From positions 1 through 64,000 of the forward strand of contig NZ_AQXQ01000009.1 in assembly GCF_000376865.1 (NCBI RefSeq): 64,000 nt of DNA. The letters are read 5' to 3'. Below the pieces are notes generated by a model that did not search any database, was not told the origin of the DNA, and saw nothing but the letters and a program-made list of their open reading frames with translations. The stretch's first letter is position 1. Each line of letters starts with the position of its first letter. Made by a program: the position numbers and the translations under genes. Of the stretch, positions 26,921 to 49,451 are shown piece after piece. This DNA is from Thioalkalivibrio sp. ALJ7 (GTDB lineage Bacteria > Pseudomonadota > Gammaproteobacteria > Ectothiorhodospirales > Ectothiorhodospiraceae).

Positions 26921-27736
26921 CTATTTCTGGCAGGTGGGGCAGTAGCTGCTGGCGCGCTGGCCGATGCGGCGGGTGCGCAGCATGCCGTTGCAGATGGGGC
27001 AGGGCTCTCCCGCGCGTCCGTAGACGCGCAGGGACTGACGAAAGTAACCATGGGTGCCATCTTCACGCAGGAAGTCGCGCAGGGTGGTGCCGCCCTGTTC
27101 GATGGCTGCGGCGAGCACAGTGCGAATGTGCGCCGCCAGGCGATCGTATTCGGCTCGAGTGACTCGGCCGGCGGCGCGGCCGGGCCGGATGCCGGCGAGG
27201 AACAGCGCCTCCGTGGCGTAGATGTTGCCAACCCCGACCACAATGGCCTGATCCATGATGAAGGCCTTCACCGCGCTCCGGCGTCCGCGGCTGCGCTGGA
27301 ACAGGTAGTCAGCGTCGAATTCCGGGGCCAGCGGTTCCGGTCCCAGGTCTGCCAGCAACGGATGCAGTGTGTCGTCGCAAGGTAAGGGCAGACAGCACCC
27401 AAAGCGGCGTGGGTCGTGCAGGCGGATCTGGTAGCCGTTGTCCAGATGCAGGATCAAGTGATCGTGCCGGCGCAGCGGCGTCCCCGGTGTGCAATGGCGC
27501 AGGCTTCCGGACATCCCCAGGTGTAGCAGGATGCCCGCGCGATCGGTTTCCAGCAGCAGGTATTTGGCGCGGCGGGACAGGGTTTGCACTCGGGCACCGG
27601 CTAGCTGTTGCGCCAGCTCCGTCGGTACCGGCCAGCGCAGGCGTGGCTCGCGGATCTCGAAGGTGGTGATACGGCGCCCTGCCAGCAGGGGTTCGAGCCC
27701 GCGTCGGGTGGTCTCGACCTCCGGCAGTTCAGGCAT
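26921..27736 (-). CDS. mutM: Formamidopyrimidine-DNA glycosylase MutM
   Basis: MutM removes 8-oxoguanine and formamidopyrimidines and cuts the abasic site. The 271-residue product begins with the catalytic MPELPEVE (N-terminal Pro nucleophile after Met removal), has the lesion-recognition helix region DQAIVVGVGNIYATEAL and ends with the zinc finger (CPICNG, then YCPTCQ). The frame is open upstream to 27910, but only the start at 27736 exposes Pro2. It overlaps the upstream chorismatase gene by 8 bp, so it is translated as the third gene of that operon. Confidence 0.97.
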   Translation of the reverse strand: MPELPEVETTRRGLEPLLAGRRITTFEIREPRLRWPVPTELAQQLAGARVQTLSRRAKYLLLETDRAGILLHLGMSGSLRHCTPGTPLRRHDHLILHLDNGYQIRLHDPRRFGCCLPLPCDDTLHPLLADLGPEPLAPEFDADYLFQRSRGRRSAVKAFIMDQAIVVGVGNIYATEALFLAGIRPGRAAGRVTRAEYDRLAAHIRTVLAAAIEQGGTTLRDFLREDGTHGYFRQSLRVYGRAGEPCPICNGMLRTRRIGQRASSYCPTCQK

Positions 27737-28676
27737 GTACGCCCTCGATCTCCAGCAATAGCTCCTGGCGGCAGATGTCGCCTCGAACCCATTGCACGAT
27801 CGGGCCAGGGTGGGCCGCCTTGTAGTGTTCCGCGAGCACTGCCGCGACCTTGGGCCGGTCTTCCGGACGGCGCAGATAGACGCGCAGCCAGGAGGGCCAG
27901 GGAAGCTCACGCCCGGCCGCGTCGTGCAGGGCTTGCAGGTTGGCCAGGGTCTCGCGCGCCTGGGCGGTTACGTCGTCTGGATGGCGGCTTTCGTGGCCGA
28001 CGATGCTGGCGGTCCCGGAGAGGAGGATCAGGGGGCCGTCCCGGGTTTCCAGACGGGTCGCGCGGGCAAACGTCGGACTTTTGGGGCTGTAGCGCTTGGG
28101 GTAATGGTAGGCACTTACCTGGCGTGGGTTCTCAAGTGGTTCGGCCGGGGTTCGGGTGGCGATCAGGTAGATGATCAACTGGCGCTGGTCGCTGCCGATG
28201 GCAGTGGCCGCTGGCATGCTGGCCAGAGGGATCTCCAGCGCCTCCAATGCGGCGGCGCGGCCGATGCAAAAGGCCTGATAGCGTTCTAGACCGTCCTCCT
28301 CGGCGTGGATGTCGCCAAAGAAGTTCCAGACCCGCACCAGATGGGTAAACCCGCGCGCGCGGCAGGCCTCGAGCAGTGCGCGGTAGGCCTGCTCTGTTTG
28401 TTCCTTCAGGCCGTGATCGGTGCCGGTCCAGCTCGCGAACAGGACATCATCGGACTCGAGCAGGTGGACGGGCCCTTCTTTGGCCATCCGAGACTCGCTG
28501 CTCGTGGTCCAGAGTTCTACATAGTCATCGGGAACCAAGGGGAGCAGTCCGGGTTGGACCTGCAGGTAATCGGGTCCAGCATCGATACCGGCGGGTTCGC
28601 GCAGGCGGATCCGCATCCCGGCGTCCGGTCCGATTGCGGTGGCCGGTGCTAGCTGGCTGCGCAGGGCGATGGCCAT
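27729..28676 (-). CDS. Chorismatase (XanB2/FkbO-type, hydroxybenzoate-forming)
   Basis: Chorismatases of this family cleave chorismate; XanB2 of Xanthomonas makes 3- and 4-hydroxybenzoate for aryl-polyene pigment and ubiquinone. The 315-residue product has the family's RidA-like fold and motifs: RVWNFFGDIH with ERYQAFCIGR (about 115-140), ENPRQVSAYHYP (182-193), SPTFARA (200-206), SGTASIVGHES (220-230) and a C-terminal GDICRQELLLEIEG containing the conserved glutamates. The start at 28676 follows the EAL-HDOD stop by 7 bp, and the 3' end overlaps mutM. Whether it makes 3-HBA, 4-HBA or 3,4-dihydroxy-cyclohexadiene carboxylate cannot be decided by eye. The longer upstream frame (to 28817) has no support. 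Confidence 0.85.
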   Translation of the reverse strand: MAIALRSQLAPATAIGPDAGMRIRLREPAGIDAGPDYLQVQPGLLPLVPDDYVELWTTSSESRMAKEGPVHLLESDDVLFASWTGTDHGLKEQTEQAYRALLEACRARGFTHLVRVWNFFGDIHAEEDGLERYQAFCIGRAAALEALEIPLASMPAATAIGSDQRQLIIYLIATRTPAEPLENPRQVSAYHYPKRYSPKSPTFARATRLETRDGPLILLSGTASIVGHESRHPDDVTAQARETLANLQALHDAAGRELPWPSWLRVYLRRPEDRPKVAAVLAEHYKAAHPGPIVQWVRGDICRQELLLEIEGVHA

Positions 28677-28683
28677 TGGTGTT

Positions 28684-29898
28684 CTAATTCTCCGACAGTG
28701 AGGCGAGTAAATCCTCGGTCCAGCGTACCGCCTCCAGGTACAGGCGGCTGGAGACCGGGGCGGGGACCGGGGCTTTGTCGGAGTCGGGTTCTGCACTGGC
28801 GCCCTCAAACGCCGCAATGGTCGCCAGCATGGGTGCGAGGGGGCCAGTCCCCTCCAGTAGCGCCTGCTCCATCTCGGGCGAGAGATGCAGCTCGCCCAGG
28901 ATGCGACGCAGGGGAACGCCCAGGACGCGGTCCATCCCGGAGAGCATGCCCAGTGTAAAATAGCGTTCGCATTCCTCGGCGGGTAGTCCCAGGGCGCGGG
29001 CCATCAGCATGCCCATGCGTGCGCGGATCATCACCTGCTCGAGTCCCTGGGTCTGGTCGCTGGAGCCGCGCAGCACCATTAGCATGGCCAAGCGCTTGAT
29101 GCGCCCCTGTCCCAGGCGCAGGATCGCGCCGTACAGGGAGTCCGTCGGGCGGTTTGCGCGGTAGGCGGGGCTGTTGGCGATGCGTAGCAGCTGAATCGCC
29201 AATCCCGGCTCGGCGGCGATCAATTCTTCCAGCTCTCCCGGTGAGGGGTCGGGTGCCTGCAATGCCTTCAGCAGGCGCAGCAGGGCGAGCTCGAGGCTCT
29301 CCAGGCGCTGGCCCTCGATCACGTGGGGGAAGGAGAGATGAAAGCCCTGAAACAGGCTGAAGCCGAGGCTCCGGCAATGGGCGTATTCTTCCGCGGTCTC
29401 GACCTTTTCGGCCAGGAGTTCCACCCCGAAGGCGCGCAGGGTCGCGACCTCCCGTTCCAGGCGCTCGGGACCGAGGGTGAGCACATCCAGCTTGACCAGA
29501 TCCGCGAGTTCTACCAGCTCGGCGTGGCTCTCCTGGAACTGGTAGTCGTCTAGCGCGATGCGAAAGCCACTCCCTTTCAGCCGGCGAACGGCGGCGATGA
29601 CCTCGGCGTCAATCTCTACATCCTCGAGGATCTCCAGCACGACCTGCTCCGGTGGCAGGCTGGTGATGACCTCGTGTTCAAGAAAGCCACGGGTAAGGTT
29701 GACGAAGGCCAGATGGTCTCCAACCAGATGTTCCAGGCCGATGTCGATAAAGGCGCTGCGCAGGAGATCCGATGTGGCCAGGTCGCCGTCGGTGACCGAG
29801 GCGGCGTCCAGGTGGCCGGCGCGAAAGAGGAGCTCGAATCCGACCAGGTTCTCCTGATCGTCGAATATAGGTTGCCGGCCGACAAAAATTGGTTGCAT
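28684..29898 (-). CDS. EAL-HDOD signalling protein (c-di-GMP related)
   Basis: The 404-residue product has an N-terminal EAL-type domain (about 1-205) fused to a C-terminal HDOD domain (about 210-345), the YuxH/CdgJ architecture. The EAL motif is replaced by FELLFR (residues 21-26). Some active-site residues remain (Asn67, Glu89 in LEILED, Asp117-Asp118, Lys136), but loop 6 (DDYQFQ) is unlike the DDFGTG of active phosphodiesterases. It may therefore bind rather than hydrolyse c-di-GMP (inference). It is the first gene of an operon with the chorismatase and mutM. Element B starts 12 bp upstream of its ATG, in the promoter region. Confidence 0.85.
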   Translation of the reverse strand: MQPIFVGRQPIFDDQENLVGFELLFRAGHLDAASVTDGDLATSDLLRSAFIDIGLEHLVGDHLAFVNLTRGFLEHEVITSLPPEQVVLEILEDVEIDAEVIAAVRRLKGSGFRIALDDYQFQESHAELVELADLVKLDVLTLGPERLEREVATLRAFGVELLAEKVETAEEYAHCRSLGFSLFQGFHLSFPHVIEGQRLESLELALLRLLKALQAPDPSPGELEELIAAEPGLAIQLLRIANSPAYRANRPTDSLYGAILRLGQGRIKRLAMLMVLRGSSDQTQGLEQVMIRARMGMLMARALGLPAEECERYFTLGMLSGMDRVLGVPLRRILGELHLSPEMEQALLEGTGPLAPMLATIAAFEGASAEPDSDKAPVPAPVSSRLYLEAVRWTEDLLASLSEN

Positions 29899-48845: not shown

Positions 48846-49186
48846 CTCGGCCTCCGAGCGCCGTTGTAGGAGAAATAACGCGTATTCGACGAAATTAAAT
48901 TGTGGTTCAAGCAGCGGATAAGCAAAGTATTTCTCGCCTTCCGGAAAGAAAATCCCAAAAAACACTATCAATGCGCGGCCGTTTAGGAGGACAATGGCTG
49001 CGAGGTAACGGTAACAGGCTCCATATTGCACCAGGCGACACCCAGGAAAATGGACGTACAGATTCGCAGTACCGGCCCCGCTCGGGACCGCAGAGAATCA
49101 CGATCAAGACCCACCGTCGTTCGGTTGCCCTTCAGTCTCTCCTCCTCGAAATCCCAATCTACTATGAACAAGCAGAGGTAACCGAA
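48846..49186 (+). promoter_or_regulatory. Long AT-richer leader of the cold-shock gene
   Basis: These 341 bp contain no supported gene and are visibly richer in A/T than their surroundings (for example GACGAAATTAAATTGTGG). Long structured 5' leaders are typical of cspA-type mRNAs, where they act as temperature-responsive switches. I cannot fold it here, and no clean promoter is defended. The csp frame stays open upstream to 48902. Confidence 0.45.
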
Positions 49187-49390
49187 ATGGCTACAGGTAC
49201 GGTGAAGTGGTTTAGCGACGAAAAAGGCTTTGGCTTTATTACCCCGACCGATGGCTCCAAGGACGTCTTCGTCCACCACAGCGCCATCCAGGGTAGCGGC
49301 TTCAAGTCGCTGGCCGAAGGCCAGAGCGTCTCGTTTGACGTCGAGCAGGGCCAGAAGGGTCCGGCCGCCGCGAACGTCGAAGCGCAGTAA
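49187..49390 (+). CDS. Cold-shock protein (CspA family)
   Basis: This is an RNA/DNA-binding single cold-shock domain. The 67-residue product is complete: [20 protein letters not shown] with RNP1 (KGFGFI), RNP2 (VFVHHSAI) and the final GPAAANVEA. The start at 49187 follows GAGGTAACC. It has a long leader upstream and a strong terminator downstream. Whether it is cold-induced or constitutive is not shown by the coding sequence. Confidence 0.95.
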
Positions 49391-49423
49391 GACAACTGCC
49401 GGCGCGTAAGCGCCAGGTTGCAG

Positions 49424-49451
49424 AAGTCCCGCCATGTGCGGGACTTTTTTT
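49424..49451 (+). terminator. Rho-independent terminator after the cold-shock gene
   Basis: AAGTCCCGC (49424-49432) pairs with GCGGGACTT (49438-49446), followed by a T run. Confidence 0.9.

What the first reader, a model, noticed from the sequence alone, without database searches (positions are those of the whole stretch)
27729..28676. XanB2-type chorismatase co-transcribed with an EAL-HDOD protein and mutM
Motifs SGTASIVGHES and ENPRQVSAYHYP place this in the chorismatase family that supplies hydroxybenzoates. In Xanthomonas it feeds ubiquinone and the xanthomonadin pigment; Thioalkalivibrio-type organisms have a membrane aryl-polyene-like yellow pigment (natronochrome). Packing it between a c-di-GMP-type signalling gene and an oxidative-damage repair gene suggests linkage of quinone or pigment supply to signalling and stress.
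Basis: partly seen in the sequence, partly recalled or inferred. Interest (0 to 1): 0.6.

Follow-up and report, generated by a model that had tools for sequence, protein, structure and literature searches.

The report
Chorismatase likely standing in for UbiC
A soda-lake sulfur bacterium seems to make the starting ring of its respiratory quinone with an unusual chorismate-splitting enzyme instead of the usual one, and a separate sister copy of that enzyme travels with genes for a polyene-type pigment.

Summary
The gene is real: window 27729-28676 (-) is a complete 315-aa chorismatase, 7 nt after an EAL-HDOD gene and overlapping mutM by 8 nt. In 30 genomes of the genus the window copy (A) is in all 23 near-complete ones, with or without the pigment cluster. 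B is in 12, all with the cluster. The methyltransferase is in all 14 near-complete cluster-bearing genomes and none of the other 9. Across 274 class genomes, the 48 with a strong chorismatase either lack ubiC or carry pigment-type genes; four weak, partial hits do not fit. I read A as the UbiC replacement (4-HBA for ubiquinone) and B as the pigment copy. Two genomes with the cluster but only A suggest A can still make both isomers. Products cannot be read from sequence, and relatedness leaves little statistical power. EAL-HDOD linkage is patchy and mutM linkage is independent of pigment, so a signalling or stress role is unsupported.

The parts
27729..28676 (-). Chorismatase, paralog A (315 aa); catalytic Glu309, Cys302, Gly221, Ala159
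   Evidence: PF21168 E 3.8e-33; Hyg5/FkbO structures; residues by alignment
28684..29898 (-). EAL-HDOD protein (404 aa), upstream neighbour; adjacent in 15 of 25 genomes of the genus that hold paralog A
   Evidence: PF00563 48.7 bits and PF08668 59 bits, both over cut-off; linkage
26921..27736 (-). mutM (271 aa), downstream, overlapping the chorismatase stop by 8 nt; adjacent in 25 of 25 genomes of the genus that hold paralog A
   Evidence: NF002211 345.9 bits over cut-off 212; linkage

Best explanation
Paralog A cleaves chorismate to hydroxybenzoate and pyruvate using the conserved acid Glu309 (Hyg5 Glu334) and supplies 4-hydroxybenzoate to UbiA for ubiquinone, replacing the absent UbiC. In genomes that also carry the aryl-polyene-type cluster, a sister copy (paralog B; here at G000:C5:8180-9100, beside a pigment-associated UbiE-family methyltransferase) supplies the pigment's ring, 3-hydroxybenzoate by analogy with xanthomonadin. 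A and B arose by duplication in this lineage. Shown: gene content, co-occurrence, conserved catalytic residues, gene tree. Inferred: enzyme activity, products, and which copy feeds which pathway.
For: No PF04345 (UbiC) match in the own genome, 99.93% complete, with E. coli found as control; ubiA over cut-off, 322 bits. A in 25 of 30 genomes of the genus and 23 of 23 near-complete ones; B in 12. PF13723 pigment marker in 15 of 30, including all 12 with B; near-complete genomes: 12 B+ marker+, 0 B+ marker-, 2 B- marker+, 9 B- marker- (Fisher 6.7e-5). One genome (G286) nested among B+ marker+ genomes lacks both. Methyltransferase beside B at 76% identity or more in 14 of 30 genomes = all 14 near-complete marker+ genomes, 0 of the 9 near-complete marker- ones; a separate UbiE-like homolog at about 31% is in 23 of 23. 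Class sample of 274: of 12 strong-chorismatase genomes without the marker, 11 lack ubiC, whereas 143 of 197 genomes without marker or strong chorismatase have it (Fisher 1.3e-5). The one exception, G038 (81% complete), has ACP, AMP-ligase and acyltransferase homologs of the pigment cluster beside its chorismatase. A and B are sisters at 99/93.
Against: G274 and G282 have the cluster and the methyltransferase but only paralog A, so A can probably serve the pigment too. A and B do not differ at the literature positions 173, 240, 327, 334, so no residue assigns products. Few independent changes: 2 independent pairs for the marker, with B going along in 1 and the methyltransferase in 2; neither can reach significance; the class-level pairs tests have no power either. 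Four weak partial chorismatase hits (G133, G156, G190, G267) have ubiC and no marker; counting all 53 hits, 5 of 16 marker-less chorismatase genomes have ubiC and Fisher falls to 0.0014. Within the genus ubiC absence was tested only in G000 and G223. The A+B grouping was only 84 (unstarred) in the 99-row quick tree.
Confidence: 0.72

Rival explanations
1. A is a bifunctional XanB2-type enzyme in the strict sense: it makes both 3-HBA and 4-HBA and feeds ubiquinone and, where present, the pigment; B only adds capacity for the pigment.
For: G274 and G282 carry the pigment cluster with A as the only chorismatase found. A has the same residues at 173/240/327/334 as most of the six Lysobacteraceae sequences examined. 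PMC4685789 (passages) describes the XanB2 subfamily as opening the oxirane unselectively.
Against: Retention of B in 12 genomes, always with the cluster, suggests A alone is not enough there. A has a long branch of its own (0.77) after the split from B.
Confidence: 0.45
2. A is the pigment supplier proposed by the first reader (xanthomonadin or natronochrome ring), with ubiquinone served by B or by another source.
For: A aryl-polyene-type cluster is present in this genome; chorismatase and the PF13723 marker co-occur at class level (36 of 48 strong-chorismatase genomes against 29 of 226 others).
Against: A is kept in all 9 near-complete genomes that lack the marker, and B in none of them; the pigment-tracking methyltransferase sits beside B, not A.
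Confidence: 0.08
3. The EAL-HDOD, chorismatase and mutM genes form a functional unit linking c-di-GMP signalling and oxidative stress to quinone or pigment supply.
For: Tight spacing on one strand; mutM adjacent in 25 of 25 and EAL-HDOD in 15 of 25. An EAL-HDOD protein of V. cholerae is described as an active phosphodiesterase (PMC12607878, passages).
Against: No EAL-HDOD match within the fetched flank in 10 of 25 genomes (one of them with only 590 nt upstream). mutM linkage is also seen in two Ectothiorhodospira species, T. sulfidiphilus, T. denitrificans and 10 class genomes outside the genus within 1 kb. Adjacency alone gives no mechanism.
Confidence: 0.07

Closest known systems
XanB2 of Xanthomonas (PMC5069965 and PMC3949708, passages read)
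   Same: Chorismatase unrelated to UbiC; in Xanthomonas it gives 4-HBA for ubiquinone and 3-HBA for the aryl-polyene pigment
   Different: Here there are two paralogs; the window copy lies outside the pigment cluster and is kept without it; products unknown. XanB2 itself was not in my tree, only Lysobacteraceae relatives.
ArcB of Azoarcus sp. BH72 (PMC3949708, passages and one section read)
   Same: Chorismatase associated with an aryl-polyene cluster and reported to give 3-HBA and 4-HBA; the arc loci also list a halogenase, an AMP-ligase and a methyltransferase
   Different: arcB sits inside an arc locus; here the cluster holds no chorismatase and the supplier acts in trans
Hyg5 and FkbO of Streptomyces
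   Same: Same fold family and catalytic Glu; Gly240 and Cys327 as in Hyg5
   Different: Ala at Hyg5 position 173 (Gly in both); score below the TIGR04444 cut-off; FkbO has Ala at 240 and 327
UbiC (chorismate lyase)
   Same: Predicted role: 4-HBA for UbiA
   Different: Different protein family; no PF04345 match in this genome

Membership tests
Chorismatase superfamily (FkbO/Hyg5/XanB2) | FkbO/Hyg5-like N-terminal domain | tested here: met
   PF21168 114.6 bits, cut-off 27
Chorismatase superfamily (FkbO/Hyg5/XanB2) | YjgF-like C-terminal domain | tested here: inconclusive
   PF01042 E 0.00024 but 21.5 bits, below its cut-off of 27.3; C-terminal half aligns over its length with the solved chorismatases
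Chorismatase superfamily (FkbO/Hyg5/XanB2) | Catalytic Glu (Hyg5 E334) | tested here: met
   E309; Glu in every row of the tabulated groups that has a letter there
NCBIfam TIGR04444 FkbO/Hyg5 subfamily | Score over the curated cut-off of 325 bits | tested here: not met
   209.8 bits; 0 of 274 class genomes pass either
CH-II (Hyg5 type) | Gly/Gly/Cys at Hyg5 173/240/327 (Nat-hyg5 Gly-164, Gly-231, Cys-318 in PMC7170507; converted by me with an offset of 9) | tested here: not met
   A159, G221, C302
CH-III (XanB2 type) | Converts chorismate to both 3-HBA and 4-HBA | not testable with these tools
   Needs an assay; PMC3949708 states that alignment alone does not predict the reaction
UbiC replacement (role, not family) | ubiA present, ubiC absent, gene kept throughout the genus | tested here: met
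   ubiC absence within the genus tested for G000 and G223 only
Aryl-polyene/xanthomonadin-type cluster in the same genome | Ketosynthase, PF13723 protein, ketoreductase, ACP, AMP-ligase, acyltransferase, exporter and glycosyltransferase together | tested here: met
   G000:C12 about 536.6-549.7 kb; the dehydratase has no Pfam match and is named by position and by tblastn to other clusters

The most novel reading that the evidence does not exclude
In Thioalkalivibrio one ancestral bifunctional chorismatase duplicated and split its work: A became the 4-HBA source for ubiquinone, and B the 3-HBA source for an aryl-polyene cluster, with a halogenase in some strains, that makes natronochrome and chloronatronochrome, pigments whose genes were unassigned in the 2011 genome paper PMC3368412.
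Probability: 0.35. Interest if true: 0.6.

Novelty: new variant of a known kind. Interest (0 to 1): 0.42.

Why it matters
It would give a natural pair of sister chorismatases in one cell, useful for finding what decides 3-HBA versus 4-HBA. It would put the replacement of UbiC on a comparative footing. It would also supply candidate genes for the Thioalkalivibrio yellow pigment, which PMC3368412 (2011; passage read) says remain to be identified. In the held paper library, searches for Thioalkalivibrio with 'aryl polyene' and with 'xanthomonadin' found no paper. A search for Thioalkalivibrio with 'arylpolyene' or 'aryl-polyene' found one (PMC9768965), a metagenome paper whose passages on the two terms are separate. 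Most subscription journals are outside that library.

Tried and rejected
A mutual-information scan for columns separating chorismatases of ubiC+ marker+ genomes (12) from those of ubiC- marker- genomes (11) gave a maximum of 0.76, below the permutation mean of 0.78, so I claim nothing from that scan. Position 173, named in advance by the literature, does differ (Ala in 12 of 12 against 4 of 11, Fisher 0.0013; by family 9 of 9 against 4 of 10, p 0.011), and position 172 differs post hoc. A and B are identical at both, so this does not assign them.

Independent-pairs tests had too few changes. mutM linkage within 1 kb against ubiC: 0 of 12 linked genomes have ubiC, 13 of 36 others do (Fisher 0.021), again without phylogenetic power; for G187 and G174 the contig ends at the chorismatase, so linkage cannot be seen. 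Rows dropped: five weak partial chorismatase hits (G123, G133, G156, G190, G267) before the 48-genome counts; four of them have ubiC and no marker, which goes against the pattern (all 53: 17 with ubiC, 36 without). G292 and G295 (low completeness) were left out of the 23-genome test and the five genomes without a detected A (G288, G289, G290, G293, G294, all under 90% complete) are not in that tree. The careful 62-row tree left out 37 of the 99 rows of the quick tree: 21 named rows, mostly long-branched, among them FkbO, plus 9 A and 7 B rows for size. The EAL-HDOD protein matched no solved structure at E 1e-5. No structure prediction was run.

Full report
WHAT IS THERE. Window 27729-28676 on the minus strand encodes a complete 315-aa chorismatase. 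PF21168 matches at E 3.8e-33. TIGR04444 matches at 209.8 bits, below its cut-off of 325; none of the matches in a 274-genome class sample passes it either. Nearest solved sequences are 5ag3/5a3k (best E 1.4e-48) and 4bps, FkbO (4.7e-36); the name Hyg5 for the first pair is recalled. The literature positions Hyg5 173/240/327/334 are A159, G221, C302, E309 here (PMC7170507 passages; the first three numbers converted by me with an offset of 9). An EAL-HDOD gene (28684-29898) ends 7 nt upstream, and mutM (26921-27736) overlaps the stop by 8 nt. Consensus scans found no promoter or terminator in the region, which neither proves nor excludes an operon.

ORGANISM AND PATHWAY. The genome (2.71 Mb, 99.93% complete) has no UbiC domain (E. 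coli control positive) but a UbiA over cut-off. It has an aryl-polyene-type cluster at C12 about 536.6-549.7 kb: DUF218 protein, flavin halogenase (PF04820), ACP, AMP-ligase, lipid A-type acyltransferase, MMPL exporter, ketosynthase, PF13723 ketosynthase-like protein, a dehydratase-like protein without Pfam match, ketoreductase, glycosyltransferase. Of the two chorismatases found in this genome, neither lies in it.

THE SECOND CHORISMATASE. The same genome has a paralog (B) at C5:8180-9100, 43% identical, next to a UbiE/COQ5-family methyltransferase. That protein scores 142 bits, below the UbiE/MenG subfamily cut-off of 158, and a second, more distant UbiE-like homolog (about 31%) is in 23 of 23 near-complete genomes, so it is probably not the ubiquinone UbiE (inference).

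GENUS COMPARISON. In 30 genomes of the genus, paralog A (55% identity or more) is in 25, including 23 of 23 near-complete ones; B (43-47%) is in 12. The pigment marker PF13723 is in 15 of 30 and 14 of 23 near-complete: the 12 with B, plus G274 and G282; the fifteenth is the incomplete G293. The methyltransferase beside B is in 14 of 30 (76% or more), exactly the 14 near-complete marker+ genomes; it was not found in G293. The halogenase ortholog (83% or more) is in 8 of 30: seven of the 12 B+ genomes and G293. Fisher for B against the marker is 6.7e-5 on 23 genomes, but the tree holds only two independent pairs that differ in the marker; B goes along in one and does not differ in the other, the methyltransferase goes along in both. 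G286, nested among B+ marker+ genomes, lacks both. G274 and G282 keep the cluster, and the methyltransferase next to pyrC, but have no chorismatase there; their A must then supply the pigment, or another source exists.

CLASS COMPARISON. Of 274 class genomes, 170 have ubiC, 65 the PF13723 marker, 267 a UbiA-family match and 53 a chorismatase match, 48 after dropping five weak partial hits. Among 36 strong-chorismatase genomes with the marker, 12 have ubiC. Among 12 without it, 1 has ubiC, against 143 of 197 genomes with neither marker nor strong chorismatase (Fisher 1.3e-5). The exception G038 is 81% complete and carries ACP, AMP-ligase and acyltransferase homologs of the pigment cluster beside its chorismatase. 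So each of the 48 either lacks ubiC or has pigment-type genes. Against this, four of the five dropped weak hits are in genomes with ubiC and without the marker; with all 53 counted, 5 of 16 marker-less genomes have ubiC and Fisher is 0.0014. None of these counts is corrected for relatedness, and the pairs tests have no power.

ANCESTRY AND NEIGHBOURS. In a careful tree of 62 sequences A and B are each one group and sisters at 99/93; the quick tree of 99 gave 84. Both branches are long, so the grouping is likely but not certain. Rooted that way, the duplication precedes the genus and B was lost more than once (inference). mutM adjoins A in 25 of 25 genomes of the genus and adjoins the chorismatase of two Ectothiorhodospira species, T. 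sulfidiphilus and T. denitrificans. In G048 the order is mutM, chorismatase, a homolog of the B-side methyltransferase, then pigment-cluster genes. This suggests that mutM is an old neighbour of a formerly pigment-linked gene, after which A stayed with mutM and B with the methyltransferase (inference). EAL-HDOD adjoins A in 15 of 25; no match lay in the fetched flank of the other ten, one of which (L056) has only 590 nt upstream. T. sulfidiphilus and T. denitrificans have a 39-42% EAL-HDOD homolog 2.3-3.6 kb upstream. An EAL-HDOD protein of Vibrio cholerae, ZpdA, is described as an active phosphodiesterase (PMC12607878, passages); whether this one is active I did not determine.

CONCLUSION. 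The best-supported reading is that the window enzyme is the lineage's UbiC substitute and that pigment precursor supply belongs mainly to B. The strict XanB2 label, both products from one enzyme, stays open and is favoured for G274 and G282. The pigment cluster is a candidate for natronochrome, whose genes were unassigned in PMC3368412 (passage); the structure of that pigment was not seen in any text here. The enzyme family is known; what is new is the paralog pair and its genomic division, hence a moderate score.

Noticed in passing
G000:C12:537266-538621 (L036:5264-6622, -): Flavin-dependent halogenase gene of the pigment cluster, present at 83% or more in 8 of 30 genomes of the genus; candidate for the chlorinated pigment chloronatronochrome.
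   Followed up: partly
L038:4873-7200 (-): RelA/SpoT-family gene divergent from the alpha/beta hydrolase, paralog B and methyltransferase genes; kept beside B in 12 of 12 loci with B.
   Followed up: no
Hyg5 positions 172/173 (P0001 residues 158/159): Chorismatases of ubiC+ marker+ genomes have Ser/Cys172 in 11 of 12 and Ala173 in 12 of 12; those of ubiC- marker- genomes have Thr172 in 10 of 11 and a residue other than Ala at 173 in 7 of 11. Possible product determinant, but post hoc for 172 and confounded by ancestry.
   Followed up: partly
L087 and L088 (G274, G282): Pigment clusters without a halogenase match, in genomes where A is the only chorismatase found.
   Followed up: partly
window 49053-49451: Rfam cspA thermoregulator match, 79.7 bits, just over the gathering score of 78.
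   Followed up: no
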